From assembly GCA_016185205.1 (NCBI GenBank), contig JACPOA010000102.1:1-51980 (forward strand): a stretch of DNA of 51,980 nt, given 5' to 3'. Shown piece by piece: positions 1 through 51,791 of this stretch; the first letter of the stretch is position 1, and every line of letters begins with the position of its first letter. The notes below the pieces were generated by a model. The model saw only the letters and a list, made by a program, of their open reading frames with translations, searched no databases and had not been told where the DNA came from. The stretch is from Hyphomicrobiales bacterium (GTDB lineage Bacteria; Pseudomonadota; Alphaproteobacteria; Rhizobiales; Xanthobacteraceae). Both the position numbers and the translations under genes were made by a program.

Positions 1-1
1 C

Positions 2-1246: not shown

Positions 1247-2794
1247 ATGCATGACAAGGTGCTGATCGTCGATTTCGGCTCCCAGGTCACCCAGCTCATC
1301 GCGCGGCGGGTGCGGGAGGAGCGGGTCTATTGCGAGATCGTGCCCTATCAGAAGGCCGAGGCCGCCTTCCGCGAGATGAAGCCGAAGGCGGTGATCCTGT
1401 CCGGCGGCCCGGCCTCGGTGCTCGACCAGGATGCCCCGCTGGCGCCGAAGGCGATCTATGAGGCCGGCGTGCCGGTGCTCGGCATCTGCTACGGCGAGCA
1501 GACCATGGCGGCCCAGCTCGGCGGCAAGGTCGAAGGCGGCCATCACCGCGAGTTCGGCCGCGCCGAGGTGGAAGTCGTCGCCGACAGCCCGCTGTTCGAA
1601 GACGTCTGGCGCGTGGGCGAGAAATATCCGGTCTGGATGAGCCACGGCGACCGCGTCACCGTGCTACCGCCGGGCTTCAAGGTGCTCGGCCGCGCGCCGA
1701 ACTCGCCGATCGCCATCATCGGCGACGACAAGCGCAAATTCTACGCCACCCAATTCCATCTCGAGGTGATGCACACGCCGCACGGCGCCGCGCTCATCCG
1801 CAATTTCGTGCGCAAGGTCGCGGGGCTCGCCGGCGACTGGACCATGCGCGCCTTCAAGGACGAGGCGATCGAGAAAATCCGCAAACAAGTGGGCAAAGGC
1901 CGCGTGATCTGCGGCCTGTCCGGCGGCGTCGACAGTGCGGTGGCCGCCGTGCTCATTCACGAGGCGATCGGCGAGCAGCTCACTTGCGTGTTCGTCGATC
2001 ACGGGCTGTTGCGGCTGGCCGAGGCCGAGAGGGTCGTGACGATGTTTCGCGACAGCTACAATATTCCGCTGGTGCATGTCGACGACAGCGAGGTGTTCCT
2101 CAAGGCGCTCGATGGGGTTTCGGACCCGGAAGAGAAGCGCAAGACCATCGGCAAATTGTTCATCGACGTGTTCGACGCCGAGGCCAAGAAAATCGGTGGC
2201 GCCGATTTCCTGGCACAGGGCACGCTCTATCCCGACGTGATCGAGAGCGTGTCGTTCACCGGCGGGCCTTCGGTGACCATCAAGTCGCATCACAATGTCG
2301 GCGGCCTGCCCGAGCGCATGAAGATGCAGCTGGTCGAGCCGCTGCGCGAACTGTTCAAGGACGAGGTGCGCGCGCTCGGCCGCGAGCTTGGCCTGCCGGA
2401 GGCCTTTGTCGGCCGCCATCCGTTCCCGGGACCGGGGCTCGCCATCCGCTGTCCGGGCGCCATCACGCGCGAGAAGCTCGACATCCTGCGGCTGGCCGAC
2501 GAGATCTACATCGAGGAAATCCGCCGCACCGGCCAATACGACGACATCTGGCAGGCCTTCGCCGTGCTGCTGCCGGTCAAGACCGTCGGCGTCATGGGCG
2601 ACGGCCGCACCTACGATTTCGTGGTGGGCCTGCGCGCGGTGACCTCGACCGACGGCATGACCGCCGACTTCTATCCGTTCGACATGAAGTTTCTCGGGAT
2701 GGTGGCGACGCGCATCATCAACGAGGTCAAGGGCGTCAACCGCGTGGTGTACGACGTGACCTCAAAGCCGCCGGGGACGATCGAGTGGGAGTGA
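1247..2794 (+). CDS. guaA: GMP synthase (glutamine-hydrolysing)
   Basis: Converts XMP, ATP and glutamine to GMP, the last step of guanine nucleotide synthesis in the cytoplasm. From ATG 1247 it is 515 aa. The class I amidotransferase domain has its nucleophile in GICYGEQTM (Cys81) with His171/Glu173 in [12 protein letters not shown]. The PP-loop SGGVDS lies at 225-230, followed by the C-terminal dimerisation domain ending in [11 protein letters not shown]. The frame is open back to a TTG at 1169, and relatives often carry a 15-25 residue N-terminal extension, so that start is possible. Neither start has a strong Shine-Dalgarno. The last 85 bp are duplicated at 3994-4078 behind the next gene, which begins 1 nt after this stop. 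Confidence 0.97.
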
Positions 2795-2795
2795 T

Positions 2796-3854
2796 ATGTC
2801 TACGGCTCCTGATTTTGACGTCAGTATTCTGAAGCCGCTTTGGACGCGCCGCGAAGATGGACGATGGGCCGTCCACGGCGCCAAAGGCATTAAACTTGCC
2901 CCTAGAGCTGGTCACGAACCAGACTATTTTCAGTTTGAAAGCGACGTTGAACTTCTATCGAATTCGCCACCAACAAATATCGGGGACTTCCTTTCTTCTT
3001 TTGGTTCGACAAATTTCTTACTGAAACAAAGTATCCTTCCTGTCGTGGTGTGGGAGCAAGGCGCTCCGAGCATTCGCTGTATTGGTACAGCGTTTGTAGT
3101 CAGTTGCACTGGTTATGTAATCACAGCATGCCATGTGCTTACTGATCCGCGAGAACGGGGCTATGGAAAGGGCACGTTGCGGGATACAACCGTCGATAAA
3201 ATTGAAATGCATGACGGTTTTCTTATGGGTGTCCTTATGCCGCTTGCGCCGGGGTCCGGTGTGAAAGGATTCAGAGTTCTGCAGTTCGAACAAGGATGGT
3301 ACTGGGGTAATTGGGCAGAGAGTCCGCTCATTCACGAGAAGGAAAAATTTGAAGGTGTGACAGACGTGGCGGTTTGTAAGCTGCGACAAAATCAGGATGG
3401 ATCTGCCCATCAGCCGCTGAATCTTTCACTCCACCCTTTCGTTAAAGGCGAAAAAGCCTACGCAATCGGCTATGCGGAAATGGAGGATATCCAGGTCGAG
3501 TACGATAACGGTCAACCAAAAATCGTAGACTTTAAATGGGACCTCTACGTTTCTGTTGGGGAAGTTGTCGAAGTCTTTCCACAAAATCACCTTTCAAAGG
3601 CCATTCCTGCTCCCGGACCAAGTTTTGATTTTCGTGCTCGAATTCCCGGTAAAATGAGCGGCGCGCCGATCTTCGGGGCTCAGGGCGCCGTCGTTCGAGG
3701 AGTTGTAAGCCGCAGTTTTTCGGGCGAAAAGCATGCGTTTGGGAGCATGATTGGCCCTGCACTTACCCTTCCGCTTAGTGATGGAAGCTCACTTAAATCG
3801 AAAATGAATTCAGGGAACGAAGGCATGGCGGTAGTTATGGGTCAGGGATTGTAA
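2796..3854 (+). CDS. Trypsin-like serine peptidase (cargo gene behind guaA)
   Basis: A 352-aa protein with no signal peptide. The middle and C-terminal parts fit a chymotrypsin/HtrA-like fold: GTAFVVSCTGYVITACHV with His113 as general base, TDVAVCKL with Asp190, and GKMSGAPIFG (285-294) with Ser288 as nucleophile. The usual GxSGGP has become MSGAP, which keeps Ser-Gly but replaces the next Gly with Ala. There is no PDZ domain, and about 85 N-terminal residues are unassigned. The start is 1 nt after the guaA stop (TGATATG) and its Shine-Dalgarno GGGAG lies in the last guaA codons, so the gene appears translationally coupled to guaA. Codon use is clearly AT-richer than guaA. The substrate is unknown. 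Stand-alone trypsin-like proteins of this type often sit in accessory loci, but no partner is visible here. Confidence 0.75.
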   Translation: MSTAPDFDVSILKPLWTRREDGRWAVHGAKGIKLAPRAGHEPDYFQFESDVELLSNSPPTNIGDFLSSFGSTNFLLKQSILPVVVWEQGAPSIRCIGTAFVVSCTGYVITACHVLTDPRERGYGKGTLRDTTVDKIEMHDGFLMGVLMPLAPGSGVKGFRVLQFEQGWYWGNWAESPLIHEKEKFEGVTDVAVCKLRQNQDGSAHQPLNLSLHPFVKGEKAYAIGYAEMEDIQVEYDNGQPKIVDFKWDLYVSVGEVVEVFPQNHLSKAIPAPGPSFDFRARIPGKMSGAPIFGAQGAVVRGVVSRSFSGEKHAFGSMIGPALTLPLSDGSSLKSKMNSGNEGMAVVMGQGL

Positions 3855-3873
3855 GCTTCATCATTGCATCCAA

Positions 3874-3991
3874 ATGCCCATCACCATCTACGGCATCAAG
3901 AACTGCGACACCATGAAGAAGGCGCGCGCTTGGCTGGACAAGCAGGGCGTCGATTATGCCTTCCACGATTACAAAACCGCCGGCATCGAAC
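3874..3991 (+). pseudogene. 5' fragment of an ArsC/Spx-like reductase gene (diverged copy)
   Basis: From ATG 3874 the sequence codes for [20 protein letters not shown] and continues to about codon 39 of the family, where it is cut. It matches the start of the intact gene at 5956 with roughly ten base differences in about 113 bp, including amino-acid changes (VDYAF against VAYDF, TAGIER against TKGIER). It is therefore a diverged orthologue rather than a fresh local duplication. After GIER it runs directly into the guaA tail in a different frame and stops at 4036-4038, giving a 54-aa hybrid frame that is unlikely to be functional. Confidence 0.85.
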
Positions 3992-3993
3992 GT

Positions 3994-4078
3994 GCGCATC
4001 ATCAACGAGGTCAAGGGCGTCAACCGCGTCGTGTATGATGTGACCTCAAAGCCGCCGGGGACGATTGAGTGGGAGTGA
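3994..4078 (+). pseudogene. Displaced 3' end of guaA
   Basis: Repeats guaA 2710-2794, including the stop, with four differences in 85 bp: GTG/GTC, TAC/TAT, GAC/GAT and ATC/ATT. All four are third-position synonymous changes, so both copies evolved as coding sequence. The sequences before and after the repeat are unrelated. It is fused upstream to the truncated ArsC-like gene, with only a few shared bases (CGCG) at the join. Confidence 0.92.
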
Positions 4079-4146
4079 CGGGTATCCCGGCTTGGCTTTG
4101 GTGCGGGTCTTAGGTGAGCTGCCGTTCTCTGCCCGCAGATCGAACG

Positions 4147-4758
4147 TCAGCGCCCCGGTCGCCGGAACGTCTTGCGCGCGCGCTCAACTTTGGCTCGGAT
4201 CACGCAATCCACAACGTGATCGTTGATCAGCCCCATGGCCTGCATGAAGGCATACACCGTGGTCGGTCCGACGAATTTCCAGCCTTGTTTCTTGAGGGCC
4301 TTCGACAAGGCAAGCGATGCCGTGGAGGTCGATGCGGTCTGCGGTTTTGCGAGCTGCTTCGCGTCGGGTTCGTAACGCCAGACGAAGGCGGCGAGCGAAC
4401 CTTCTTGCTTGACGAGTTCTTGCGCCCGTCGTGCATTGTTGATGACCGCTTCGATCTTGCCGCGATGGCGGACGATGCCGTCATCCTTGAGCAGACGATT
4501 GACGTCGCGCTGGGTGAAGCGCGCTATTCTGTCGAAATCGAAATCATGAAACGCTGCGCGGAAGTTGTCGCGCTTGGCGAGAATGGTGCGCCAGCTCAGT
4601 CCGGATTGAAAACCCTCCAGACTCAATTTCTCGAACAAGCGACGATCATTACTGACCGGGAAGCCCCATTCGGTATCGTGATAGCCAAGAAACTCCGGGG
4701 CGGCGCCGCACCAGCGGCAGCGCGACTTGCCGTCCGGCCCCAATATCGTTGTCCTCAT
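4147..4758 (-). CDS. tag: DNA-3-methyladenine glycosylase I
   Basis: A base-excision repair enzyme that removes 3-methyladenine from alkylated DNA. The 203-aa product starts MRTTILGPDGKSRCRWCG and has the family signatures YHDTEWGFPV, FEKLSLEGFQSGLSWRTIL, HRGKIEAVINNARRAQEL and FVGPTTVYAFMQAMGLINDH. The zinc-site cysteines and histidines (Cys14 and Cys17 near the N-terminus, a His and a Cys in NDHVVDC near the C-terminus) are present. Length is as expected. It lies 42 bp downstream of the yciI-like gene on the same strand and may be the last gene of the tetR-yciI-tag group. The 68 bp to the displaced guaA tail hold nothing recognisable. Confidence 0.95.
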   Translation of the reverse strand: MRTTILGPDGKSRCRWCGAAPEFLGYHDTEWGFPVSNDRRLFEKLSLEGFQSGLSWRTILAKRDNFRAAFHDFDFDRIARFTQRDVNRLLKDDGIVRHRGKIEAVINNARRAQELVKQEGSLAAFVWRYEPDAKQLAKPQTASTSTASLALSKALKKQGWKFVGPTTVYAFMQAMGLINDHVVDCVIRAKVERARKTFRRPGR

Positions 4759-4800
4759 GTGTCTAAGATCCTTGCGCCGAGAAGATAGGGCGGATGTTAT

Positions 4801-5088
4801 TCAAGCGAGCAGAAACTCTAGCCGTTGATCGGTCCGCGATAGCGCGATCTCAAGAATTTCCGCGCTGACAACATTTTCCGCGACAAACGGATCGTCGTTC
4901 ACCCTGCTTTGAAGGGCCGGCAGCGACGTATTATGCGCCACAATACCACCACCCAAGTTCGGCTGAAGATTGCCGACCAACAAAAACACGCCGTCATCAA
5001 AACCGCGTTTGATCCATGCCTTGTGGCCTTCCATGAATTGGCCGGCATTGCTTTTGTTGTCGGAGAATTTAAGCGTTACGATAAACAT
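4801..5088 (-). CDS. YciI-like (YCII domain) protein
   Basis: A 95-aa single-domain protein starting MFIVTLKFSDNKSNAGQFM, with HKAWIKRGFDDGVFLLVGN and DPFVAENVVSAEILEI. This is the ferredoxin-like pattern of the YCII family: a His near the start of helix 1 (H23), and an acidic DPF motif. Family members are small cytoplasmic proteins, probably enzymes, of mostly unknown substrate. The start is fixed by a strong Shine-Dalgarno AGGAGAGG just upstream of ATG 5088, although the frame stays open further upstream. It follows the TetR gene by 26 bp and is probably co-transcribed with it, so it is the likeliest regulated target. Confidence 0.85.
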   Translation of the reverse strand: MFIVTLKFSDNKSNAGQFMEGHKAWIKRGFDDGVFLLVGNLQPNLGGGIVAHNTSLPALQSRVNDDPFVAENVVSAEILEIALSRTDQRLEFLLA

Positions 5089-5114
5089 CCGATGTCCTCT
5101 CCTATAAATATGCC

Positions 5115-5735
5115 TTAACGCCGCGCGGCCTTGTCCACGCCGCGTCCGCCGGATGCATTGAGCGCCGCGCCTTCGGTGTACGAATCCAGCCACTCACACA
5201 TCTGCTGCACTTCTTGCTTGATGAACTTCTCATCGTGAAACGCGCTTGCCAGTGTGGCGACGCCCTGGCTGCGGGCGAGCAGATGCATCGCCAGCGCGTC
5301 GGCGTCCGCTTTGCGGCCGAGCAGCGTGAATTGCCTGCGCAGCCAGGTCCGAAACAGCGTAAAGAGCTTGTTGGCCTCGGCTTGCGAGGCATGAGTCAGC
5401 TTCGTAAGCTCGGTGCACAGCGTGCCGACCGGGCAGCCGTAACGTTTAATGTCGGCCCGGTTCGCGATCAGAATATGGATAAAGCTCCGGATGCGATCGG
5501 CAGGTTGTTTCCCTTCGATTTCCCACTGCTCCAGCATCTTCCGGGTGCTGGCTAGACGCACATTGATCACGGCATCCAGAATTTCATCCTTGGATTTGAA
5601 GTGATAGTAAAAATTGCCACGCGAAATCTGGACGGCGTCCGCGATGTCCGAAAACGAGGTGTGTTCGTAGCCGTGCCGATAGAATAGCTGATCGGCAGCT
5701 TCGATAATGTGATTGCGGGTTGTCTGATCGCTCAT
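5115..5735 (-). CDS. TetR/AcrR-family transcriptional regulator
   Basis: A 206-aa regulator. The N-terminal helix-turn-helix is textbook: NHIIEAADQLFYRHGYEHTS, then FSDIADAVQISRGNFYYHF (residues 28-46) and KSKDEIL. The C-terminal ligand-binding half is variable (IANRADIKRYGCPVGTLCTE onwards), close to the YxxGCPxG pattern of TetR proteins that sense electrophiles or alkylated compounds. The conserved Cys in GCPVG could be a redox sensor, but that is inference. A perfect 16-bp inverted repeat lies 40-81 bp upstream of the start and is the probable operator. It heads a likely operon with the YciI-like gene and tag. Confidence 0.93.
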   Translation of the reverse strand: MSDQTTRNHIIEAADQLFYRHGYEHTSFSDIADAVQISRGNFYYHFKSKDEILDAVINVRLASTRKMLEQWEIEGKQPADRIRSFIHILIANRADIKRYGCPVGTLCTELTKLTHASQAEANKLFTLFRTWLRRQFTLLGRKADADALAMHLLARSQGVATLASAFHDEKFIKQEVQQMCEWLDSYTEGAALNASGGRGVDKAARR

Positions 5736-5774
5736 GAGATAAACTCACCCACCGGCAGTCTGGCGTGGACGGAG

Positions 5775-5816
5775 TCGGACGGTCGTCCTAATGGCACAAG
5801 TAGGACGACCGTCCGA
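5775..5816. promoter_or_regulatory. Probable TetR operator: perfect 16-bp inverted repeat
   Basis: TCGGACGGTCGTCCTA (5775-5790) and TAGGACGACCGTCCGA (5801-5816) are exact reverse complements separated by 10 bp. Each arm is itself nearly palindromic (GGACG-GT-CGTCC), so the site may hold two operator units bound by two dimers. It sits 40 bp upstream of the tetR start, where binding would repress tetR, and 140 bp upstream of the ArsC-like gene on the other strand. Confidence 0.8.
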
Positions 5817-5955
5817 ATCTGTCAAGGACCAACCGGGATGCAAAATGCGGCACGGCGGATTCACAGGTTAGGTAGAAAACGGTCAAAAGCGCGGCATCCG
5901 GCCTTGCCGCGCGGCGCCTCCGGGCCGATGAATCGCATGAAAATGGCGGGATCGA

Positions 5956-6321
5956 ATGGGCAATTCCATCACCATCTACGGCATCAAGAACTGCGACACC
6001 ATGAAGAAGGCGCGCGCCTGGCTCGACAAGCAGGGCGTCGCCTATGATTTCCACGATTACAAAACCAAGGGCATCGAGCGCGAGAAGCTGGAGCGCTGGG
6101 CCAAGGAAGCCGGTTGGGAAACGCTGCTCAACCGCGCCGGCACGACCTTCAAGAAATTGCCCGACAAGGACAAAGACGGCGTCACCGAGAAAAAGGCCAT
6201 CGCGCTGATGCTGGCGCAGCCGTCGATGATCAAGCGCCCGGTGCTCGAGCTTGGTGGGGGCAGGCTGTTGGTGGGCTTCAAGCCGGAGCAATACAGTGAG
6301 GCCGTTGTCGTGCAGGCGTGA
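5956..6321 (+). CDS. ArsC/Spx-family thioredoxin-fold protein (YffB type)
   Basis: A 121-aa protein with the ArsC-like fold. Cys13 is in [17 protein letters not shown] and the conserved Arg is in MIKRPV. YffB-type proteins keep a single N-terminal cysteine and are not proven arsenate reductases. They are thought to act as glutathione- or thiol-dependent reductases. The product is complete, unlike the 5' fragment at 3874. It is read away from tetR and is followed closely by hicA, whose likely start lies 8 bp past this stop. A second possible hicA start (GTG 6318) overlaps the end of this gene by 4 bp. Confidence 0.9.
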   Translation: MGNSITIYGIKNCDTMKKARAWLDKQGVAYDFHDYKTKGIEREKLERWAKEAGWETLLNRAGTTFKKLPDKDKDGVTEKKAIALMLAQPSMIKRPVLELGGGRLLVGFKPEQYSEAVVVQA

Positions 6322-6329
6322 GGCTGCCA

Positions 6330-6587
6330 ATGGCCAGCGACAAAAAGACCTTTGACGCGGTCCTTAGTGGCCGTGGAACCATAGCTTTCCGCGACTTTGA
6401 ACATTTGCTCTTGGCGCTTGGGTTCAACCTGGCGCGTACGAAAGGCAGCCATCATATGTACGTGCATCCGGCGGCCGGCAGGCCTTTTCCCGTCCAGCCG
6501 GAAGGAAAGGACGCAAAGCAGTACCAAGTCCGCCAGCTTCGGACTATAATAGATAAACATAGGCTCACACTCGACTCGAACGCATGA
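6330..6587 (+). CDS. hicA: HicA-type toxin (mRNA interferase)
   Basis: An 85-aa protein from ATG 6330, preceded by GAGG at a good distance. An upstream in-frame GTG (6318) is less likely. HicA toxins have a small dsRBD-like fold with a catalytic histidine and cleave mRNA. The signature is GFNLARTKGSHHMYVHP followed by GRPFPVQP, and the end (QLRTIIDKHRLT) matches the family's last helix. The N-terminal 20 residues are longer than in the shortest HicA proteins. The stop overlaps the hicB start (ATGA), the usual toxin-antitoxin coupling. Confidence 0.85.
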   Translation: MASDKKTFDAVLSGRGTIAFRDFEHLLLALGFNLARTKGSHHMYVHPAAGRPFPVQPEGKDAKQYQVRQLRTIIDKHRLTLDSNA

Positions 6588-6802
6588 ACAATTACGCCAT
6601 TGTCGTCTACTGGTCGGATGAGGACTCCGTCTGGATTGCGGAGGCCCCGGACCTTGAACCTTGTGCCGCGCATGGCGACACGCGCGAGGCCGCCGTCGCA
6701 GAGTTGCGGGTGGCCATGGAGGCGTGGCTCGAGGTCGCCCGCGAAAATGGTATGCCGATCCCTGAGGCGCGCTACCGGCCGGCGACCGTCGCGGCTGAAT
6801 AA
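6584..6802 (+). CDS. hicB: HicB-type antitoxin
   Basis: A 72-aa partner of hicA. The N-terminal partial RNase H-like fold is typical of HicB: YAIVVYWSDEDSVWIAEAPD, then CAAHGDTREAAVAELRVAME and a final helix. There is no clear C-terminal helix-turn-helix or ribbon-helix-helix after VARENGMPIPEARY, so this is a short form that may neutralise the toxin without strong DNA binding of its own. It starts inside the hicA stop (4-bp overlap). Confidence 0.85.
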   Translation: MNNYAIVVYWSDEDSVWIAEAPDLEPCAAHGDTREAAVAELRVAMEAWLEVARENGMPIPEARYRPATVAAE

Positions 6803-6846
6803 CCGCGGCAACCCCGCCCCTTGATCCGGCCCGCTTTCCCTGCCAC

Positions 6847-8484: not shown

Positions 8485-8529
8485 GGGAGCTTGCCTAAAG
8501 CCATCGCAATCGCTTCTACTGCGTCGTCC

Positions 8530-8577
8530 GCATGATCCCGAAAAGGGGGAACCGGTTTTCGGATAAGATCATGCGCA
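8530..8577. repeat. Rhizobiales-type palindromic repeat, copy 1
   Basis: GCATGATCCCGAAAAG at the left and TTCGGATAAGATCATGCGC at the right form an inverted repeat around GATC/CATGC ends. A second copy lies at 32091-32140. Similar GCATGATC...GATCATGC elements are, from memory, abundant between genes of Bradyrhizobium-like genomes. It lies in the 114-bp gap between prfC and the NnrU gene. Confidence 0.85.
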
Positions 8578-8598
8578 GACAATGTACCGGGAGTACCC

Positions 8599-9180: not shown

Positions 9181-9185
9181 TCCCG

Positions 9186-10010: not shown

Positions 10011-10018
10011 CTTTCTTG

Positions 10019-10894: not shown

Positions 10895-10902
10895 GAACCT
10901 CC

Positions 10903-35400: not shown

Positions 35401-36288
35401 ATGGCGCTGTCGAGCATGACCGGCTTTGCGCGCGGCCACGGCGTTGCCGGCTCCTATGCCTGGAGCTGGGAGATCAAATCGGTCAACGCCAAAGGCCTCG
35501 ATTTGCGGCTGCGGCTGCCGCCGGGCTGGGACGCGGTCGAGGTGCCGGCGCGCAAGAACGCCACCGAAAAACTGTCGCGCGGCACCGTCTATGCCAATCT
35601 CACGGTCGAGCGCAAAGGCGTGCAGCCGACCGTCAAAGTCAACGAGCCGGTGCTGGCCGCCGTGCTGGCGACGCTCAAGGGGCTGGCCGGCAAGGTCGAG
35701 GCCTCGCCGCCGAGCCTCGACGGCATTCTGGCGCTCAAGGGCGTGATCGAGGTCACCGAAGAGGACGAGCGCGAGGAAGACCGCCGCGCCGCCGAGGCCG
35801 CCATCATCGCCGGCTTCGACAAATTGCTCGCCGACCTCATCGCCATGCGGCGCGAGGAAGGCGCCACGCTCGGCCGCCTGTTGTCGGCGCGGCTCGACGA
35901 GATCGCCAAGCTCGCGGCGCGCGCCGAAGCGGCGCCCGGCCGCAAACCCGAAGCGATCAAGGCGCGGCTGGCCGAGCAGGTGGCGACCCTGCTGGCGGCC
36001 TCGCAGCGTTTCGATTCCGACCGCCTGCATCAGGAGGCGATCCTGATCGCCAGCAAGGCCGATATCCGCGAGGAACTCGACCGGCTCGTCTCTCATGTGG
36101 AGCAGGTGCGCAAGATGATCGCCGACGGCGGACCGATCGGCCGCCGGCTCGATTTTCTGGCGCAGGAACTCAATCGCGAATCGAATACGCTCACCGCCAA
36201 GGCCAATGACGTCGAGCTCACCAATATCGGCCTCGAGCTCAAGAGCGTGGTCGAGCAGTTCCGCGAGCAGGTGCAGAACCTGGAGTGA
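35401..36288 (+). CDS. yicC: YicC-family endoribonuclease
   Basis: A 295-aa protein that starts MALSSMTGFARG, the hallmark of YicC, and ends with the DUF1732 segment (RRLDFLAQELNRESNTLTAK, IGLELKSVVEQFREQVQNLE). YicC proteins form a clamp-like hexamer and cleave RNA, influencing stress adaptation and small-RNA turnover. The acidic residues of the metal site in HQEAILIASKADIREELDRL are present. gmk follows, with its likely ATG 5 bp past this stop. Confidence 0.95.
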   Translation: MALSSMTGFARGHGVAGSYAWSWEIKSVNAKGLDLRLRLPPGWDAVEVPARKNATEKLSRGTVYANLTVERKGVQPTVKVNEPVLAAVLATLKGLAGKVEASPPSLDGILALKGVIEVTEEDEREEDRRAAEAAIIAGFDKLLADLIAMRREEGATLGRLLSARLDEIAKLAARAEAAPGRKPEAIKARLAEQVATLLAASQRFDSDRLHQEAILIASKADIREELDRLVSHVEQVRKMIADGGPIGRRLDFLAQELNRESNTLTAKANDVELTNIGLELKSVVEQFREQVQNLE

Positions 36289-36293
36289 TTTCC

Positions 36294-36947
36294 ATGACGG
36301 TCAAACGGCAGGCGGAGACGAGCATCGCCCGGCGCGGGCTGATGCTGGTGCTGTCGTCGCCCTCGGGCGCCGGCAAGACCACGCTGTCGCGCCGGCTGTT
36401 GGCCGAGGACAAAGGCGTCACGCTGTCGGTGTCGGTGACCACGCGCAAGATGCGGCCGGGCGAAGTGGACGGCCGTGACTATCATTTCATCGACCGCAAG
36501 CAGTTCGACGCGCTGGTCGAGAAGGACGGCCTGCTGGAATGGGCCGAGGTGTTCGACAATTACTACGGCACGCCGGTCGCGCCGGTGATGGACGCGCTGA
36601 GCCGTGGGCACGATGTCTTGTTCGACATCGACTGGCAGGGCACCCAGCAGCTGAGCGAGAAGGCGCGCGGCGACGTGGTGAGCGTATTCATATTGCCGCC
36701 CTCGATCCCCGAGCTGGAGCGCCGGCTGCACAGCCGTGCGCAGGACGATTACGAGACCATCCACCGCCGCATGGCGAAAGCCGCCGACGAGATGAGCCAC
36801 TGGGCGGAATACGATTACGTCGTGATCAATCGCGACCTTGAGCAGGCCTTCGCCGACGTGACGGCGATCCTCGCCGCCGAGCGGCTCAAGCGCGAGCGCC
36901 AGCCGGGCCTGTCCGACTTCGTGCGCGGGTTGATGGCGAAGCTGTAG
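36294..36947 (+). CDS. gmk: Guanylate kinase
   Basis: Phosphorylates GMP to GDP. From ATG 36294 it is 217 aa. The P-loop is SSPSGAGKTTL, with SVTTRKMRPGEVDGRDYHF for GMP binding, LLEWAEVFDNYYGTP and VLFDIDWQGTQQL. The C-terminus is FVRGLMAKL. The last eight codons and stop recur at the end of the next gene (37987-38013; 25 of 27 bases the same). It works downstream of guaA in guanine nucleotide supply. Confidence 0.97.
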   Translation: MTVKRQAETSIARRGLMLVLSSPSGAGKTTLSRRLLAEDKGVTLSVSVTTRKMRPGEVDGRDYHFIDRKQFDALVEKDGLLEWAEVFDNYYGTPVAPVMDALSRGHDVLFDIDWQGTQQLSEKARGDVVSVFILPPSIPELERRLHSRAQDDYETIHRRMAKAADEMSHWAEYDYVVINRDLEQAFADVTAILAAERLKRERQPGLSDFVRGLMAKL

Positions 36948-37188: not shown

Positions 37189-38013
37189 TTGCTCGGCGCC
37201 AGATCCGAGCTGCGCTCGCATTCGCCGATGCAGATGGACAAGAGGGTTGCCCTGAACGGGCCCTATGGCGCACTGGCCAATGCGACGGAGCTCCCCAATT
37301 CTCCGCAGGTGGCCAGCCCGCTGTTCGAACCCAAGGTCTTGGCGCTCAACAGCGAGCCGACGTTCGAGCGGCCGCCAAAGTCGGCCTCGATCATCGAGGC
37401 GCCGCTGCCACCGCCAGCTCCCGTGCGAGTCACGAGCGATGTGCCGTTGCCGCTGCCGCGGCCGGTGTCAGCAGCCGTTGTGGCAGCAACCGCGCCGCCG
37501 CCCGCATCTGGGCTCCGTACGCCCCGCACGCAGGCTCACAACGGGGCCTTTGCGCTGCCCGGTGTCGACAGTCGCACCGCGGTCTATGACATCTCGGCGC
37601 GCACGGTGTATTTGCCTAGCGGCCACACGCTGGAAGCGCATTCCGGCCTGGGCGAGAAGATGGACAATCCGCGCTATGTCGCCGTCAAGAATCGCGGGCC
37701 GACGCCGCCGAATGTCTACGATCTCAGTCTGCGCGAGCGGCCGTTCCACGGCGTGCAAGCCATTCGCCTGACGCCGGTTGATGAGGGCAAGATGTTCGGG
37801 CGCGACGGCATGCTCGCGCATTCCTATATGCTCGGGCCGAACGGCCAATCGAATGGATGCGTGTCGCTCAACAATTATCCGGCCTTTCTGCAAGCCTTCC
37901 TCAGGGGCGAGGTCGATCGGCTGGTCGTCGTCGCGCGTCTGCCGAATTCGCCGTCGCCCGCGCTCATGTCGCGTCGCCAGGGCAACGTGCGCGGGCTGAT
38001 GGCGAAGCTTTAG
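37189..38013 (+). CDS. DUF2778/Tlde1-type (L,D-transpeptidase-like) protein
   Basis: The C-terminal domain (about TAVYDISARTVYLPSGHTLE to EVDRLVVVARL) matches DUF2778, the Tlde1-like L,D-transpeptidase fold. It has the His in GRDGMLAHSY and the Cys in NGQSNGCVSLNN. These proteins act on peptidoglycan in the periplasm. The middle is a Pro/Ala-rich linker. Coordinates begin at an in-frame TTG, but the frame is open back to 37099 and encodes FFRIVACACVAVGCLIAAAW, a good membrane anchor, without ATG, GTG or TTG. CTG 37108 has GTGAGG seven bases upstream. The last eight codons plus stop equal the gmk end, so the native C-terminus seems to have been replaced. Confidence 0.8.
   Translation: MLGARSELRSHSPMQMDKRVALNGPYGALANATELPNSPQVASPLFEPKVLALNSEPTFERPPKSASIIEAPLPPPAPVRVTSDVPLPLPRPVSAAVVAATAPPPASGLRTPRTQAHNGAFALPGVDSRTAVYDISARTVYLPSGHTLEAHSGLGEKMDNPRYVAVKNRGPTPPNVYDLSLRERPFHGVQAIRLTPVDEGKMFGRDGMLAHSYMLGPNGQSNGCVSLNNYPAFLQAFLRGEVDRLVVVARLPNSPSPALMSRRQGNVRGLMAKL
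37987..38013 (+). repeat. Second copy of the gmk 3' end
   Basis: 27 bp encoding VRGLMAKL plus TAG, matching 36921-36947 with two differences (TTG/CTG and CTG/CTT), both synonymous. The sequences on either side are unrelated. It serves as the last codons of the DUF2778 gene. Confidence 0.82.
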
Positions 38014-43004: not shown

Positions 43005-43049
43005 GGTCTCAATTGCGCCGGCGCTCGCAGGCGTCGGCGTGGCTTTGCA

Positions 43050-45536: not shown

Positions 45537-46633
45537 CACCCATCCTCCTGGTACAACAACGCGATAAACCCCGTCAGACCGCCGACGAGCACAGGCAGCC
45601 ATGCCGCTGCCACCGGGTGCATCAGCTCGGCTTTGCTCAGATCGTCGGTCACTTTCGATAAAACATAAAGCAGAAAGCCGGCAGCCACGCCACTTAAAAC
45701 CATCTTCTGCACCCCGCCGAAGCGGAAGAACCGTAAACTGACCGCGGCGGCAAGGAAAACCATGGCGGCCAGGAAAAATGGACGTGCCAGAAGCTTTTGG
45801 AACTGCAATCTATAGCCTGCCGCCCCGAGACCTGCGTGTTCCGCAATATTGATATACAGTGGAAGTTCCCAAAACGGGACAGTTTCCGGCGTCGCAAAAC
45901 TTTCACGGACCTGTTCCGGCGTCAGGTTGGTCTTGAGCGGGTAGCTGGCGCGGTCGGCCGGCAGGACGCCCGGCTCGTAGATGCGGGCATCGAGCAGCCG
46001 CCAGACGCCCGGCTCCAGCACCGCCGCGCGCGCCTCGATGCGCTGCTTGAAGTGGCCTTCGGGATCGAAGGTGAATACTGACACGCCGTTGAGGTTGACG
46101 CCCTGGTCGGTGCTCGATTTGGCATTGATGACGGCCTGGCCTTCGGCCGTGCGCTGGTTCACCCAGAGGGAGCCGCCACCGCTGCGCAACGCCGACGGGG
46201 TCCGTCCGAACAGTTCGGCTTCGTAGCGCTTCGAACGCTCCTGCAGCGAGGCGGAGACCGGGTTGTAGACGGTGGTGAAGAAAACCCCGAGCAGGAAGGC
46301 CACCACCACCGCCGGCGAAATGAATTGCCAGGCCGACATGCCGGCGGCGCGCGCCACCACCAGTTCGAGCCGCCGCGACAGATTGAGATAGCAGGACATC
46401 GCGGCGATCAGCACGCAGAATGCCAGGAACTGCTCGGTCACTTGCGGCACGCGGTAGAACGAGGTCTTGGCCACCAGGGCAGCCGTGACATTCGGAATGT
46501 CACTGGTGCGGCGCATCAGTTCGACATAGTCGAGCAACGCCACCAGCGCGAAAATGCCGACGAACACCAGCAGCACCGCGCTCAGAAAGCGCAGGCCGAA
46601 ATATCGAGCGAGTGTTCCAACCAGTATCTGCAT
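45536..46633 (-). CDS. lptG: LPS export permease LptG
   Basis: A 365-aa inner-membrane subunit of the LptB2FG transporter. Three N-terminal membrane helices (LSAVLLVFVGIFALVALLDY and two more), a periplasmic beta-jellyroll (about 150-260), and three C-terminal helices. RRLELVVARAAGMSAWQF is the cytoplasmic coupling helix that contacts LptB. It is the second permease after lptF (9 bp gap) and overlaps the lptD start by 1 bp. lptB is not in the window. Confidence 0.94.
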   Translation of the reverse strand: MQILVGTLARYFGLRFLSAVLLVFVGIFALVALLDYVELMRRTSDIPNVTAALVAKTSFYRVPQVTEQFLAFCVLIAAMSCYLNLSRRLELVVARAAGMSAWQFISPAVVVAFLLGVFFTTVYNPVSASLQERSKRYEAELFGRTPSALRSGGGSLWVNQRTAEGQAVINAKSSTDQGVNLNGVSVFTFDPEGHFKQRIEARAAVLEPGVWRLLDARIYEPGVLPADRASYPLKTNLTPEQVRESFATPETVPFWELPLYINIAEHAGLGAAGYRLQFQKLLARPFFLAAMVFLAAAVSLRFFRFGGVQKMVLSGVAAGFLLYVLSKVTDDLSKAELMHPVAAAWLPVLVGGLTGFIALLYQEDG

Positions 46634-46642
46634 GGCGTTACT

Positions 46643-47803
46643 TCACGGGGTGGCGAATTGCCGGTTGAGGCGATCGATAACGGCGGTCATCCACTTGGCG
46701 AGGAAGGCCGGCGGCTCCAGGATGAGGCCGCGGCGGATCACGAACATCCCGGCGCCGAAGGCGATGACGAGCGCCACGTACTGCAGCGACAGCATCCACG
46801 GCGTATTGGCGCCGAACACGGTGGAGACGAATCCGATCAGACGCAGCAGCCCCACCCCGCTGATGGCGCCGATCAACGACATCGTGCGGCTTTGCCGCGT
46901 GGTGCGCGGCGCGCCGAGATAGGTGAAGGCGATCACCACGAAGGCGAACGGATAGATCGGCGCCACCAGCCGGTCGTGCAGTTCGGCGCGGAACTGGCCC
47001 GGCTGCTCGATGTAGAACGGGTCCTTCGGATCGGGGAACATGAGCTGCCAGAGATAGCGTTCGCGGATCGAATATTTCACCGCCTGCTGGCCGCCGGAGA
47101 ACTGCGCCAGGTCGAAGGCGTAGCGGTCGAACACCACCATCGCCGGATCGCGCTCCTTGAACTCGTGGCGCTGCACGATGCCTTTCTGCAGCACCAGGAA
47201 GGTGCCGTTGTCGTTGTCCAGAAGCTCGCCGGTCTCGGCGAGCACGGTGATGCGTTCGTTCGGATTGCGGCGGTCGTCGAGGAAGATGCCGGCGAGCTCG
47301 CCGTTGTTGCGCCGCTCGCGGATATGAATCATGACGCCGTTTTCGATCGAGGTGAAGCGGCCAGGCTGCACGATCGTGCTCACCACATTGGCGCGCACCT
47401 CGGTGAGCCAGTCGCGCAGCATGCGCAGGCCCTTGGGCGCGAAATAGGCGCTGATCGCGCACACGATCAGCGACACCACGAGCGCTACCGACATGAAGGC
47501 GCGGAACAGGAACCACGGCGACATGCCGGCGGCGTTCATCACGATGATTTCGCTGTCGGTGGACAGCTTGTTGAGCACGTGCACCACCGCGATCAGCAGC
47601 GCGATCGGCGCGATCACCAGGATCAGCAGCGGAATGATCAGGCCGGTGATGCCGACGAACACCAGGATGGTCTGCCCCTGGCTGGTCATCAGGTCGAAGT
47701 CGCGCAACGCCTGCGTGACCCAGATCAAGGCCGTCAGGCTGACCAGCACGACCGTGAACGCACCGAACGTCGTGCGGAAGATATATCGATTGATCGACCC
47801 CAT
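46643..47803 (-). CDS. lptF: LPS export permease LptF
   Basis: A 386-aa partner of LptG with the same six-helix plus jellyroll layout. The N-terminal MGSINRYIFRTTFGAF fixes the start at ATG 47803, although the frame stays open upstream. STDSEIIVMNAAGMSPWFLF is the coupling helix and the periplasmic domain covers about residues 125-265. It is the first gene of the lptF-lptG-lptD-surA-pdxA-rsmA series. Confidence 0.94.
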   Translation of the reverse strand: MGSINRYIFRTTFGAFTVVLVSLTALIWVTQALRDFDLMTSQGQTILVFVGITGLIIPLLILVIAPIALLIAVVHVLNKLSTDSEIIVMNAAGMSPWFLFRAFMSVALVVSLIVCAISAYFAPKGLRMLRDWLTEVRANVVSTIVQPGRFTSIENGVMIHIRERRNNGELAGIFLDDRRNPNERITVLAETGELLDNDNGTFLVLQKGIVQRHEFKERDPAMVVFDRYAFDLAQFSGGQQAVKYSIRERYLWQLMFPDPKDPFYIEQPGQFRAELHDRLVAPIYPFAFVVIAFTYLGAPRTTRQSRTMSLIGAISGVGLLRLIGFVSTVFGANTPWMLSLQYVALVIAFGAGMFVIRRGLILEPPAFLAKWMTAVIDRLNRQFATP

Positions 47804-48335
47804 CCGCGACGTCGTCCCCCAGTTCCGGCCGGCATCAGTCGGCGTCCGGCGTCCCACCGGCGCATAGACAACAGAACGTAAACCCAACCCCCCGTCAGGT
47901 TTACCTTGTTCGGTCTACAAAGTGGCCATGCAAAGGCAAAGCCGTTGAACATGCACAACAAAAGGTAAATGCCGGGAACAACGGAGGCTCCGAATCCGTG
48001 CCTCTGGCGGCCGATTTTGGTAAAATAATACCGCAACGGATGCAGCTGGACCCGGAAATGGCGTCCGACCCCCATGAAAAGCCTAAAAACGTGGCGATTT
48101 GGCCTGGCGCTGTCCACCCTCGGTGAGGCCGCCAACCCGGCCGCGGGGTCGGGTTCCTCGATTGGACGGGGACTTTTAGGCCGTCGCCGCCAGTAACCCG
48201 ATGGCATGCGCTAGGGGCAGCGGAAAGGAAAAGAAGCATATGTCCTGCTGCGCGACGTGACGCCGCCGAGCAGCGGTTCGCCGGCCGTGCATGACAAGGT
48301 GCCGGTGAATATGACGTGACGGGCCGCCGCATCGG
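47804..48335. other. 532-bp gap upstream of lptF
   Basis: Should carry the lptF operon promoter near 47804-47950. Some frames are open on the minus strand (up to about 150 codons), but their predicted products are Arg/Pro-rich shadow-like sequences without start signals. I see no RNA gene or strong repeat here. Confidence 0.5.
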
Positions 48336-48725
48336 TCAGATTGAACATGCGGGCAAAACCAACAGCACACGTGCGTCGGTCTGCGCCCAGGCCACCGAAG
48401 ACCAGCGCGCGCCCCCGGCGGCGAACACGAACATGTACCAAAGCATGCCGACGCTGAGCGCCAATCCGGCGCAAACCGCAAAACCGCCGAGCGCCTTTCG
48501 CCAATTTTGAAAATAAAGCAGAAAGTAGCCGGTGACGGACTGACGCCAGACCAGCGTCGCGAACAGATAGGCGCAAATCAACACGATGAGGTAGTTGACG
48601 ATTTGGCCGGCGCCGCTGGCCGCCATCAGGTCGATCGAAATGCCGGCGGCGTTGAGAACCGATTGCGCGATAAACGACGCGAAGAAAATGCTCGCGATGA
48701 GGCCGAGCAGGTAAATGATCCGCAT
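48336..48725 (-). CDS. Small four-helix membrane protein of unknown function
   Basis: From ATG 48725 the product is 129 aa. Four hydrophobic stretches (IIYLLGLIASIFFASFIAQ; IVNYLIVLICAYLFATLVW; the segment around GGFAVCAGLALSVG; and MLWYMFVFAAGG) suggest an inner-membrane protein. No named family is recognised. A GTGAAG sequence upstream gives a modest ribosome site. It is divergent from pepA (224 bp apart). Confidence 0.65.
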   Translation of the reverse strand: MRIIYLLGLIASIFFASFIAQSVLNAAGISIDLMAASGAGQIVNYLIVLICAYLFATLVWRQSVTGYFLLYFQNWRKALGGFAVCAGLALSVGMLWYMFVFAAGGARWSSVAWAQTDARVLLVLPACSI

Positions 48726-48949
48726 GACTTCACCAAGGATCGGCACGCCGGGAGACGGCCTGTTGTGACGGATTTTTCCGGTGCAAGGAAGCCGGCGGCC
48801 TCGGCTCGACGGCCGTTATCGGCATGTCCCCAGATAATTCTCGAATTGACAGGCATTCCGCTGATGGACATGGGAATGGCATGTACGATAGCAGACGGTT
48901 GCAAACACCGGCTAACCCGCCGGGTTTTCCCGCATAAGGATTACGCGCA

Positions 48950-50449
48950 ATGACCGCTGCCCTGAAGCTCGGATTTGGCCCCTTCGCCGCGCCGGCCAAA
49001 GGCGTCCTCATCGTGTTTTGCGACGATGCGCTCAAATTCGGCCCGGCTACCCGCAAGGCCCTGGGCACGGCCGCCGACCTGGTGGCGCGCGCGGCCAAGA
49101 CCGAGCGTTTCACCGGCAAGAGCGGCTCCGCGCTCGAGCTGATCCTGCCGGAAGGGCTGAAAGTCGCCCGCCTGGTGGTGATCGGCAGCGGCAAGACGGC
49201 CGAGCTTCAGCCAAAGGACATCCTCAAGCTCGGTGGCGCCGCCATGGGCCGACTGCCGGCGGCGGCCTCCGACGGCAGCGTGTTCGCCGAGTTCGCCAGC
49301 GGCGCGCTCGGGGCCGAGCAGGCGGCGGATCTGGCGCAAGGCGTGCGGCTGCGCGCTTACGCTTTCGACCGTTACAAGACCAAGCGTAAGGATGACGAGA
49401 CGCCGCCTGCGAAGCGGAGCGTGACCATCGCCGTCGCCGATGTCATCGCCACGCGCAAGGCCTATCAGAGCCGCGAGGCGGTGGCCGAGGGTGTGGTGAT
49501 GGCGCGTGATCTCGTCAACGAGCCGGCCAACGTGCTGCATCCGGAGGAATTCGCCCGCCGCGCGGCCAGCTTGAAAAAAGTCGGCGTCGCGGTCGAGGTA
49601 CTCGACCTCAAGGCGTTGAAGAAGCTCGGCATGAACGCATTACTGGCGGTCGGCCAGGGCTCGGCGCACGAGAGCCGCGTGGTCGTCATGCGCTGGAACG
49701 GTGGCAAGAAAGGCGAGGCGCCAGTCACCTTTATCGGCAAGGGCGTCTGTTTCGACAGTGGCGGAATCTCGATCAAGCCGTCCGCCGGCATGGAGGACAT
49801 GAAGGGCGACATGGCGGGCGCCGCCTGTGTAGTCGGGCTCATGCATGCGCTTGGCCGCCGCAAAGCCAAGGTCAACGCGATCGGCATCATCGGCGTGGTC
49901 GAGAACATGCCGGACGGCAATGCACTTCGACCAGGCGACATCATCAAAACCATGGCTGGAAAAACGATTGAGATTATCACCACCGACGCCGAAGGCCGAA
50001 TGGTGTTGATCGACGTCCTCACTTATGTTCAGAAATATTTAAAGCCAAAAGCCATGGTCGATCTGGCGACACTCACCGGCGCAATCATTGTGGCATTAGG
50101 TTTCGAATACGCAGGCTCGTTCTCGAACGACAATGCGCTCCATCAAAAGCTGGAGAAGGCATCGGAAAAAACCGGCGAGAAAATCTGGCGAATGCCGGTT
50201 GGCGAAGAACACGATCACTATATAAAATCTCAGTTCGCCGATTTGAAAAATGCGGGCGGCCGTTGGGGCGGTGCCATTTCAGCGGCGCGATTTCTGCAGA
50301 ATTTCGTGACCGAGGTACCCTGGATTCACCTCGATATTTGCGGAGTTGCATTCAATAATAAATCCGACGAAATCAGGCACTCATGGGCGTCGGGATGGGG
50401 CGTCCGTCTGCTGGATGAATTTTTGAAAGAAAACTTTGAGAAGAAGTAA
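48950..50449 (+). CDS. pepA: Leucyl aminopeptidase (mosaic gene)
   Basis: An M17 two-metal aminopeptidase, 499 aa, with AAGGA upstream of the start. Metal and catalytic residues are Lys264, Asp269 and Asp287 ([17 protein letters not shown]) and Asp346, Glu348 and Arg350 ([10 protein letters not shown]). Codon use changes sharply near 49920, at the conserved GNALRPGD block. Before it, third positions are mostly G or C. After it, codons such as AAA, TTA, GCA and ATT are frequent. All active-site residues remain, so the hybrid should work. A GC-rich alternative C-terminal end of the same family lies at 51618-51791, beyond the next gene. Confidence 0.95.
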
Positions 50450-50461
50450 CACCCGGCGTGC

Positions 50462-51505
50462 CTATTTAGGCTCCCACCACATCAGGATGCCATTGCCTGG
50501 GAAGATCGGATGGCTGATGACGCATTGGATAAAGCCATCGTCGATCTCAGAATAGAGAAGATTTTTGTCGGTTTGTTGCTTTAGCGGCAGCACCGGATCA
50601 GCTATCATCCTGATCGATTTTGGATAATGCGCCGCAAATGTAAGGCTGTCGCAAATGAACAGCATGCGATAAAGCTCTTTGTCGCTTTTCCGCTTTATCA
50701 TTCGATATGACAAGCAAACCAATTTTGATTGGCCGGCCTCGAGAGGAATCGGAAACGTAAAATTCTTATTCCGCTCATCGTCCGGCGCCAATTTATCGGT
50801 TTTATTCAGCGCCGCTAAATTAAAGTATTTGCCGTCAATATTTAATGATAACAGGCCGGTTTTCGCCACCAGGCTATTCGGGTTGAAGAATTCCTTCAAT
50901 TCCTTTTCAACCGTGAATGCGCCGGGAAAATTGCCTGAATATCCTGAAATATTTTTAACGACATAGGACACCTCGACATCGAAAATTAACAGCGATGCGC
51001 ACATTTCAAGTTTAGTTTTTGCCGAAACATTTTTGCTGATGTCGTCGCTATTCAATTCATTTACATGGTATGTAATTTTCAAATTCTCTCGCATGAATTG
51101 TTCCTTAAAAAGATTCTCCTCGATCAATTTGAAAACTTTTGGTGGCAAATTTACGTTATAAAGAAACTCGTAGATCGATACTGACAATTGTTGGCTGGTT
51201 TCTTCAACAAACTGAATGTATTCTCGCCGGGCGTTGGCTTCTATGAGCCATGCGACAACAAATGAAATAATAAATGCAAATCCGAGTTCTTTCAAAAAGG
51301 CGGAGACTTGTTTGAGATCAAGTCCGATTTGGCTGTACGCAAGCTCCCGGCCATAGGTTGGATAAATAATTCCAGCGATGATCAGCAGGCTGCCTATGAT
51401 GAACGGCCATGTCGGTGGATAGCGTTTATATTTATTTGCAATCGCATTAAGTCGGGTCTTAATGCGCTGAAGTTTTTCGTTGAACATTTCAGGCGAGTTT
51501 TGCAT
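50462..51505 (-). CDS. Two-helix membrane protein of unknown function (cargo gene behind pepA)
   Basis: A 347-aa protein of AT-rich codon use. A basic, coiled N-terminus (NEKLQRIKTRLNAIANKYKR) is followed by two membrane helices, about 34-48 (PFIIGSLLIIAGIIY) and 72-87 (GFAFIISFVVAWLI). The remaining 250 residues look soluble, with helices up to about 140 and a beta-rich part after it (LEMCASLLIFDVEVSYVV; LLSLNIDGKYFNLAALN). I do not recognise a family. It is convergent with pepA, 12 bp apart. Two N-terminal helices with a cytosolic sensor-like domain occur in several defence and stress proteins, but there is no effector motif to support a function. Confidence 0.72.
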   Translation of the reverse strand: MQNSPEMFNEKLQRIKTRLNAIANKYKRYPPTWPFIIGSLLIIAGIIYPTYGRELAYSQIGLDLKQVSAFLKELGFAFIISFVVAWLIEANARREYIQFVEETSQQLSVSIYEFLYNVNLPPKVFKLIEENLFKEQFMRENLKITYHVNELNSDDISKNVSAKTKLEMCASLLIFDVEVSYVVKNISGYSGNFPGAFTVEKELKEFFNPNSLVAKTGLLSLNIDGKYFNLAALNKTDKLAPDDERNKNFTFPIPLEAGQSKLVCLSYRMIKRKSDKELYRMLFICDSLTFAAHYPKSIRMIADPVLPLKQQTDKNLLYSEIDDGFIQCVISHPIFPGNGILMWWEPK

Positions 51506-51617
51506 GAAAAACCTTTACGTCAGGCCGTGCAATCTTAAATTGTAAGTTTTTAGAGTAGCCGAGGCAACCACGATAAATATGGCTATTGCGCGCGGCCGGT
51601 GCCTGCGAATATGTTCG

Positions 51618-51791
51618 GTCACCGCCGCGCAATTCATCAAGCGCTTCGTCGACGACAAGACGCCGTGGGCGCGTCTCGACATCGCCGGCACCGGCTTCGA
51701 CAGTCGCCAGACCGACATCAACAAGAGCTGGGGCTCGGGCTGGAGCGTGCGGCTGTTGGATAAATTGGTGAAGGATTATTACGAGCGGTGA
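51618..51791 (+). pseudogene. Displaced C-terminal end of pepA
   Basis: 57 codons plus TGA that read [20 protein letters not shown], then [20 protein letters not shown] and [17 protein letters not shown]. They align along their length with the last 57-59 residues of the pepA at 48950 ([10 protein letters not shown]...PWIHLDI...[14 protein letters not shown]), but with GC-rich codons like the 5' part of pepA. There is no start codon or ribosome site. The join with foreign sequence is near 51617. Confidence 0.9.

What the first reader, a model, noticed from the sequence alone, without database searches (positions are those of the whole stretch)
1247..51791. Three housekeeping genes show the same 3'-end capture: intact gene, cargo gene, displaced native tail
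guaA, gmk and pepA are each complete, each followed by a cargo gene (trypsin-like protease, DUF2778 protein, two-helix membrane protein), and each have a second copy of their own 3' end beyond the cargo. This is read directly from the sequence. All three are plus-strand genes and none has an integrase nearby. The geometry fits homology-facilitated illegitimate recombination, known from natural transformation: one end of incoming DNA pairs with a conserved gene, the other joins by a few bases of chance identity. If right, this genome gains accessory genes by repeated one-sided capture at essential genes, giving a simple way to find cargo genome-wide.
Basis: partly seen in the sequence, partly recalled or inferred. 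Interest (0 to 1): 0.85.

Follow-up and report, generated by a model that had tools for sequence, protein, structure and literature searches.

The report
One-sided gene capture at gene ends
Foreign genes appear to have been slipped in just behind two housekeeping genes of this bacterium by a sloppy, one-sided recombination that leaves a displaced scrap of the gene's end as a scar, and similar scars turn up at other genes and in related bacteria.

Summary
Two of the three loci hold up. At guaA, the intact gene is followed by a protease gene, a 5' fragment of the neighbour arsC, and an 85-nt second copy of the guaA 3' end. At pepA, the gene is a mosaic: from about codon 320 it is AT-rich and unlike all 26 relatives compared. 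A minus-strand cargo gene follows, then the native pepA tail with native sequence behind it. The switch point and the tail start lie about 360 nt apart, which fits homology-facilitated illegitimate recombination (HFIR) better than one-site integrase insertion. gmk does not fit: its 28-nt copy looks like a short ectopic patch. The scar recurs: 29 of 391 family genomes (26 strong) carry downstream guaA tail copies with varied, partly clustered breakpoints; no head copy was seen near guaA. In 1.65 Mb sampled from three genomes, 12 partial gene tails lie downstream of their parent on the same strand and none upstream. I found no tyrosine integrase at these loci. HFIR and the displaced-tail geometry are known (Vibrio T6SS and Rhs loci); their spread over housekeeping genes is what I did not find described. 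Donors and uptake route are not shown.

The parts
1247..2794 (+). guaA (GMP synthase), intact; anchor gene of capture 1
   Evidence: Pfam GATase, GMP_synt_C; homologues in relatives
2796..3854 (+). cargo 1: trypsin-like serine protease, GC about 0.49
   Evidence: Pfam Trypsin_2; GC profile; homologues at 36-46% identity in 8 other family genomes
3874..3992 (+). 5' fragment of a second arsC-family gene, cut off at about 3992
   Evidence: 115 nt (3878-3992) at 91% to intact arsC 5966-6080
3994..4078 (+). displaced guaA 3' end including stop (85 nt, 95%)
4147..4758 (-). gene behind the displaced tail: 3-methyladenine DNA glycosylase; same order with tetR, arsC and prfC in G028 as far as its contig reaches
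5956..6321 (+). intact arsC-family gene; directly follows guaA in some relatives
36285..36947 (+). gmk (guanylate kinase), intact
37189..38013 (+). DUF2778 / Tlde1-domain ORF; also next to gmk in G028
37986..38013 (+). 28-nt copy of the gmk 3' end forming the last codons of the DUF2778 ORF; short ectopic patch, not a displaced tail
48950..50449 (+). pepA, intact mosaic ORF: native to about nt 49,905-49,930, foreign and AT-rich from there to the stop
   Evidence: GC3; window identities against 26 relatives
51615..51791 (+). displaced native pepA tail (last 58 codons plus stop)
   Evidence: 74-88% to relatives' pepA, 43% to the main gene's own C-terminus
51792..51834 (+). native downstream sequence of pepA, 97.7% to the sequence behind pepA in G028
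   Evidence: 1 of 26 relatives matched

Best explanation
guaA and pepA carry scars of one-sided capture of foreign DNA, i.e. homology-facilitated illegitimate recombination or a process with the same products. Incoming DNA carried the 3' part of the homologous housekeeping gene plus the donor's downstream gene(s). It recombined by homology inside the conserved gene; its other end joined with little or no homology to a point near the 3' end of the recipient's gene. The result is an intact (for pepA, hybrid) gene, the donor's downstream cargo, and the recipient's own tail displaced behind it. Shown: the anatomy, the pepA mosaic, the native context of the displaced pepA tail, no integrase found, and recurrence at other genes and in other genomes. 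Inferred: that the DNA came in linear, the strand-exchange steps, and the donor (for guaA probably a congener with guaA-protease-arsC order). The gmk case is a separate, short ectopic patch of about 26-28 nt.
For: pepA: in the twelve 25-codon windows up to codon 300 at least 1 of 26 relatives is less typical than G000; from codons 301-325 on, in all eight windows, none is. GC3 falls from 0.75-0.95 to 0.50-0.70 at codon 321. The displaced tail is native in sequence and context. Switch at about codon 320 and tail start at about codon 442 mean that native codons in between were lost, which a single crossover site cannot give. guaA: a truncated arsC 5' end is joined to the guaA tail; arsC follows guaA directly in G007, G018, G021, G022 and, in another family, G050. 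G008 shows the same anatomy: guaA, minus-strand low-GC cargo, a 105-nt segment also present 7.6 kb further on, guaA tail. G005 has a 185-nt, 98.9% pepA tail copy behind a BrnT/BrnA pair. Family: 29 of 391 genomes with downstream guaA tail copies, 26 of these 29 at E below 1e-8, sharp junctions to unrelated sequence at many positions, against no head copy near guaA on the same contig. Scan: 12 partial tail copies downstream on the same strand, 0 upstream, 0 on the opposite strand, among 1126 genes; hits classed as paralogues show no such bias (tail hits 7 downstream, 6 upstream).
Against: No donor with guaA-protease-arsC or pepA-cargo order was found. In 9 of 10 family guaA loci tested the displaced copy was not closer to most congeners than the main tail; decay and close donors would explain it, but so might other routes. 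Breakpoints look too alike: 9 of 28 guaA breakpoints fall within 17 nt (83-99 nt before the stop; p 0.002 against uniform, 0.03 against a smoothed null), and the pepA tails of G000 and G005 start at about codons 442 and 440. Clean head cases (2 genes) are rarer than tail cases (10 genes; p 0.04), which HFIR alone does not demand and which I ascribe to selection. Several tail copies of the scan are weak (43-83 nt, 56-61 bits: histidine kinase, uvrA, acetate kinase). Competence genes were not looked for. On recheck the pepA coincidence made me lower this confidence slightly.
Confidence: 0.67

Rival explanations
1. The inserts are remnants of integrative elements whose recombinase cut inside the 3' end of the gene; the displaced tail is the far attachment site and the recombinase gene was lost or acts in trans.
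For: guaA 3' ends are a known integrase target (PMC9376610, passages); tails outnumber heads; guaA breakpoints cluster at 83-99 nt; G000 and G008 guaA tails start 85 and 87 nt before the stop, and G000 and G005 pepA tails at about codons 442 and 440.
Against: The published guaA core GAGTGGGA lies in the last nucleotides of the gene, whereas copies here run from 26 to 324 nt with many start points. pepA has different left and right breakpoints. No match to an HMM of 10 own-genome integrases in 28 family loci or window 1-9000; no PF00589 match on this contig. Serine recombinases were not searched for on their own, and the HMM had no outside positive control.
Confidence: 0.15
2. Single-crossover (Campbell-type) integration of a circularised fragment or plasmid that carried a truncated gene tail plus cargo.
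For: Gives the same order intact gene - cargo - truncated tail; PMC3240628 (abstract) reports circularisation and single crossing-over of incoming linear DNA in E. coli. Fits guaA and G005 pepA as well as HFIR.
Against: At window pepA the switch lies about 360 nt upstream of the start of the displaced tail, outside the segment such a circle would carry.
Confidence: 0.13
3. Assembly or binning artefact joining two strains or contigs.
For: The genome is a 112-contig assembly; the window is one whole contig.
Against: Junctions show no long shared sequence; genomes listed with one contig show the same scar (G249, G321, G345, G366, G385, G404; G004 aspS); main and displaced tails differ, from 1% (G005) to 57% at protein level (window pepA).
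Confidence: 0.03
4. For gmk alone: the DUF2778 3' end acquired 26-28 nt of gmk sequence by template switching or a short-patch illegitimate substitution.
For: Aligning flanks on both sides of the patch in G028; same frame and stop as in gmk.
Against: Only two genomes compared; direction of change inferred, not polarised with an outgroup.
Confidence: 0.75

Closest known systems
Homology-facilitated illegitimate recombination (three naturally competent species; E. coli at very low rate, PMC3240628)
   Same: One end by homologous, the other by illegitimate recombination (abstract of PMC3240628; passages of PMC2884548)
   Different: Laboratory events; here natural scars inferred from genomes, uptake route unknown
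Vibrio cholerae T6SS immunity-gene arrays and Rhs C-terminal displacement (PMC5361080, passages)
   Same: Conserved upstream part as anchor, new 3' part plus cargo inserted, old 3' end and genes shifted downstream, repeated accretion; the authors propose a mechanism akin to HFIR
   Different: There the anchor is an effector gene region; here housekeeping genes (guaA, pepA, rpoD, uvrA, aspS, radC) with intact reading frames
GIsul2-type islands in guaA (PMC9376610, passages)
   Same: Cargo inserted at the 3' end of guaA
   Different: Integrase with 19-bp att sites and a GAGTGGGA core; here no integrase found and tails of up to 324 nt
Neisseria minimal mobile elements (search listing only; concept recalled)
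   Same: Cassettes exchanged between conserved flanking genes without own recombinase (recalled)
   Different: Recalled as two-sided replacement by homology in both flanks, without displaced tails
Short-patch double illegitimate recombination in Acinetobacter (recalled; the abbreviation SPDIR occurs in 3 papers listed, none read)
   Same: Very short ectopic substitutions, as at gmk/DUF2778
   Different: No experiment here

Membership tests
Homology-facilitated illegitimate recombination | Homologous crossover in one flank, seen as a change of affinity inside the anchor gene | tested here: met
   Window pepA only: identity and GC3 switch at about codon 320; guaA inconclusive
Homology-facilitated illegitimate recombination | Other end joined at a sequence without extended homology | tested here: met
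   Sharp junctions with unrelated upstream sequence at window guaA and the 25 family loci printed (of 28; L151, L152, L163 not printed)
Homology-facilitated illegitimate recombination | Left and right breakpoints independent, with local deletion or duplication | tested here: met
   Window pepA: about 360 nt of native gene lost; not tested at the other loci
Homology-facilitated illegitimate recombination | Entry as linear DNA and RecA dependence | not testable with these tools
   Needs experiment; competence genes not searched for
Integrase-borne genomic island in a gene 3' end | Integrase gene in the element | tested here: not met
   Tyrosine type only: none on this contig; no hit in 28 loci and window 1-9000
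Integrase-borne genomic island in a gene 3' end | One fixed crossover core shared by both ends and by independent insertions | tested here: not met
   Tail lengths 26-324 nt and different ends at window pepA; but a cluster at 83-99 nt and similar pepA starts in G000 and G005
Campbell-type single crossover | Crossover inside the duplicated segment | tested here: not met
   Window pepA; not resolved at guaA

The most novel reading that the evidence does not exclude
In this bacterial family the 3' ends of housekeeping genes act as general landing pads for integrase-free, one-sided capture, so that displaced gene tails are a countable scar of single acquisition events genome-wide; guaA is a shared pad that gathers defence and other accessory genes, and its preferred breakpoint 83-99 nt before the stop, like the matching pepA breakpoints of two genomes, points to a joining step with sequence preference that I have not found described.
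Probability: 0.3. Interest if true: 0.75.

Novelty: new variant of a known kind. Interest (0 to 1): 0.58.

Why it matters
How bacteria gain single accessory genes that carry no mobility gene is hard to study because old events leave few marks. If displaced tails are reliable scars, each marks one capture with its boundaries, anchor gene, cargo and junction, so rate, cargo, donor range and joining preference can be measured from sequence. The pepA locus also shows a housekeeping gene replaced over its 3' third by a distant version as a by-product.

Tried and rejected
Donor search: the protease has homologues at 36-46% in 8 other family genomes and weak matches in 3 more (12 of 391 genomes matched, own genome included); the pepA cargo found no relative in one scan of genome contigs; the foreign pepA part found only homologues at 43-49% (16 loci). 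Rejected: gmk as a third capture; one fixed integrase site at guaA. A guaA affinity switch was not resolved (the nearest relative changes along the gene without clear pattern). The family search with the pepA tail was not resolved, since pepA has a paralogue and most second matches fell below the listed rows; only G000 and G005 are verified. The head control: one search showed, by my reading, 20 of 391 genomes with two or more matches; re-search of these 20 with 400 nt gave no head copy near guaA on the same contig. G305 has a head-part match on another contig that overlaps its main match and cannot be placed, and G272 a diverged full-length match; copies on other contigs were left out for tails too. 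One search lost its relatives through a wrong motif filter; only its GC3 column is used and the comparison was repeated (26 of 29 relatives; G008, G017, G026 dropped because no reading frame passed the filter). The integrase HMM had no outside positive control. The Pfam and PADLOC scans of cargo took 150 of 176 ORFs (26 ORFs of 91-123 aa left out) and list only the 25 commonest families, so rare families may be missed. ORF calls contained shadow genes; replace them. The 28 breakpoints were taken with shared junctions (L140/L141; L154/L158/L159) counted once and L151 and L152 left out.
Full report
What the window is. The window is the whole of contig C100 of an unnamed 4.38-Mb genome in 112 contigs, 96% complete. 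Related genomes are known here only by handles; same genus and family as stated by the genome search. The group is not named by any search; from recall, a family with a large genus of 5-11 Mb genomes looks like the Bradyrhizobium group.

guaA. The intact gene (1247-2794) is followed one base later by a protease ORF of lower GC (2796-3854; Trypsin_2). Then come 115 nt that are 91% identical to the 5' end of the intact arsC-family gene at 5956-6321, and, one base on, 85 nt that are 95% identical to the guaA 3' end with its stop. Behind that lie a 3-methyladenine glycosylase, a tetR gene and the intact arsC. G028 has glycosylase-tetR-arsC-prfC in the same order up to its contig end. In G007, G018, G021 and G022 arsC follows guaA directly, and in G050, of another family, by coordinates; in 14 other genus genomes with both on one contig about 4-25 kb lie between them. 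The simplest reading is that a donor with guaA-protease-arsC order recombined in guaA and its end, inside arsC, was joined to the recipient's guaA tail. The guaA gene itself gives no clear affinity switch.

pepA. The ORF 48950-50449 is open, but codons from about 320 on are foreign: GC3 falls from 0.75-0.95 to 0.50-0.70, and in all eight windows from codon 301 the gene is less similar to 26 relatives than each relative is to the rest, while in the twelve earlier windows 1 to 25 of 26 relatives are less typical than it. By tblastn the C part is 57-61% identical to the relatives with a complete pepA in L098-L117, the N part 65-81%. The displaced tail 51615-51791 is 74-88% identical to relatives and 43% to the main gene's own end, and the 43 nt behind it match the sequence behind pepA in G028 at 97.7%; no other of the 26 relatives matched there. 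So the native tail is in its native place; what is new is the 3' third of the gene plus a minus-strand gene. Switch point and tail start (about codon 442) are some 360 nt apart, so native codons in between were lost. This is the strongest evidence for one homologous and one illegitimate joint.

gmk. The second copy is 28 nt (26 identical) and forms the last codons of the DUF2778 ORF. G028 carries gmk, DUF2778 and the next gene in the same order (80% over about 2250 nt) with a different DUF2778 end and aligning sequence on both sides. This is a short replaced patch, not capture. Separately, gmk falls in two groups in the genus: 77-94% protein identity to the window in 5 loci (L098, L099, L100, L102, L115), 54-59% in 14 others.

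Recurrence at guaA in the family. Searching 391 family genomes with the last 100 nt of guaA, 79 by my reading of the table had two or more matches. Besides G000 and G008, 77 were searched again with 400 nt; 27 have a second match on the same contig and strand downstream, which with G000 and G008 makes 29 of 391. The rest were short hits of chance size, copies on other contigs or far away, or a full-length second gene. Comparing each main gene with its own downstream sequence, 26 of the 29 loci have a copy at E below 1e-8 (L151, L157, L163 are weaker); gaps run from about 0.3 to 17.7 kb and tails from 26 to 324 nt, some copies do not reach the stop, and several loci have two. Junctions are sharp. 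Loci L140 and L141 share one junction, and L154, L158 and L159 probably one, so events are fewer than loci. Nine of 28 start points lie at 83-99 nt, which is unexplained. Cargo at these loci includes HamA with a helicase (L145), DUF4238, DUF2971, cytochrome bd oxidase, LysR regulators, an SNF2 helicase (L151, a weak locus), and among the 150 ORFs scanned together GajA-like, AriA/PtuA-like and AcnB-like proteins. The protease and the pepA cargo of the window have no PADLOC match. No head copy near guaA was found on the same contig in the same 391 genomes (Fisher p 2e-9 for 29 against 0); G305 has an overlapping head match on another contig that cannot be placed.

Recurrence at other genes. A scan of 851 kb of this genome (593 genes), 400 kb of G004 (285) and 400 kb of G385 (248) for partial copies within 8 kb found 12 tail copies downstream on the same strand at 10 genes, 0 upstream and 0 on the opposite strand. 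The window's guaA is one of the 12; without it 11 copies at 9 genes remain. The genes are guaA, rpoD (two copies), an enolase-superfamily gene, a histidine kinase, uvrA, marC, an acetate kinase, aspS (G004; named by eye), a FAA-hydrolase and radC (two copies; G385). Head copies upstream on the same strand number 4; one belongs to a tandem paralogue pair and one is 32 nt with an inverted partner, leaving cobW and mnmE. Partial mid-gene copies on the same strand are roughly balanced in G000 (7 downstream, 5 upstream; 9 more lie upstream on the opposite strand) but not in G385 (11 and 2, nine of the 11 from one repetitive gene). An earlier protein-level scan of 452 kb of G000 and 400 kb of G004 gave 22 partial hits: tail downstream same strand 12 (pepA among them), head upstream 4, head downstream 4, tail upstream 1, tail downstream opposite strand 1, some of them weak domain matches. 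G005 has a pepA event of its own with a BrnT/BrnA pair; its tail starts at about codon 440, close to the window's 442.

Mechanism. Steps shown: anatomy, mosaic and native context at pepA, varied breakpoints, no tyrosine integrase found, recurrence, tail-over-head bias. Steps inferred: entry as linear DNA, RecA pairing, end joining. Selection can explain the bias, since insertion behind a gene spares its promoter, but this was not tested. Against: no donor found, no closer affinity of displaced guaA copies to congeners in 9 of 10 loci tested, and the partial clustering of breakpoints.

Compared with the literature. HFIR and its products are known (PMC3240628 abstract and outline; PMC2884548 passages). 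The Vibrio T6SS arrays show the same geometry and the authors propose a mechanism akin to HFIR (PMC5361080 passages). GIsul2 integrates at a GAGTGGGA core in the guaA 3' end (PMC9376610 passages). In the listings that I read of searches for natural HFIR scars at housekeeping genes and for guaA hotspots, no title or abstract start describes them (capped lists, an open-access library only).

Noticed in passing
L216-L225 (G000:C7) 41801-48849: rpoD has two displaced tail copies downstream (86 and 175 nt) and a 93-nt mid-gene fragment, with a CotH-kinase-like gene in between: nested accretion.
   Followed up: partly
window 8529-8579 and 32091-32141: A 51-nt repeat element (GCGCATGATC...GATCATGCGC type); similar copies in sampled contigs C7 and C92.
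   Followed up: no
window 23177-23431: 15-nt tandem repeat array (about 10 copies).
   Followed up: no
window 17300-18400: Low-GC stretch (about 0.47) with short ORFs between high-GC genes, a possible further acquisition.
   Followed up: no
window 36285-36947: gmk falls into two protein groups within the genus (77-94% and 54-59% identity to the window), suggesting allelic replacement.
   Followed up: no
L145 1698-4840: A HamA-helicase pair (Hachiman-like) sits between guaA and a 235-nt displaced guaA tail.
   Followed up: partly
L118-L137, region between guaA and arsC: Between guaA and arsC the genus carries anything from nothing to about 25 kb: an insertion hotspot.
   Followed up: partly
L138-L164 and L118, 83-99 nt before the guaA stop: Breakpoints of displaced guaA tails cluster here (9 of 28), for no known reason; pepA tails of G000 and G005 also start within a few codons of each other.
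   Followed up: partly
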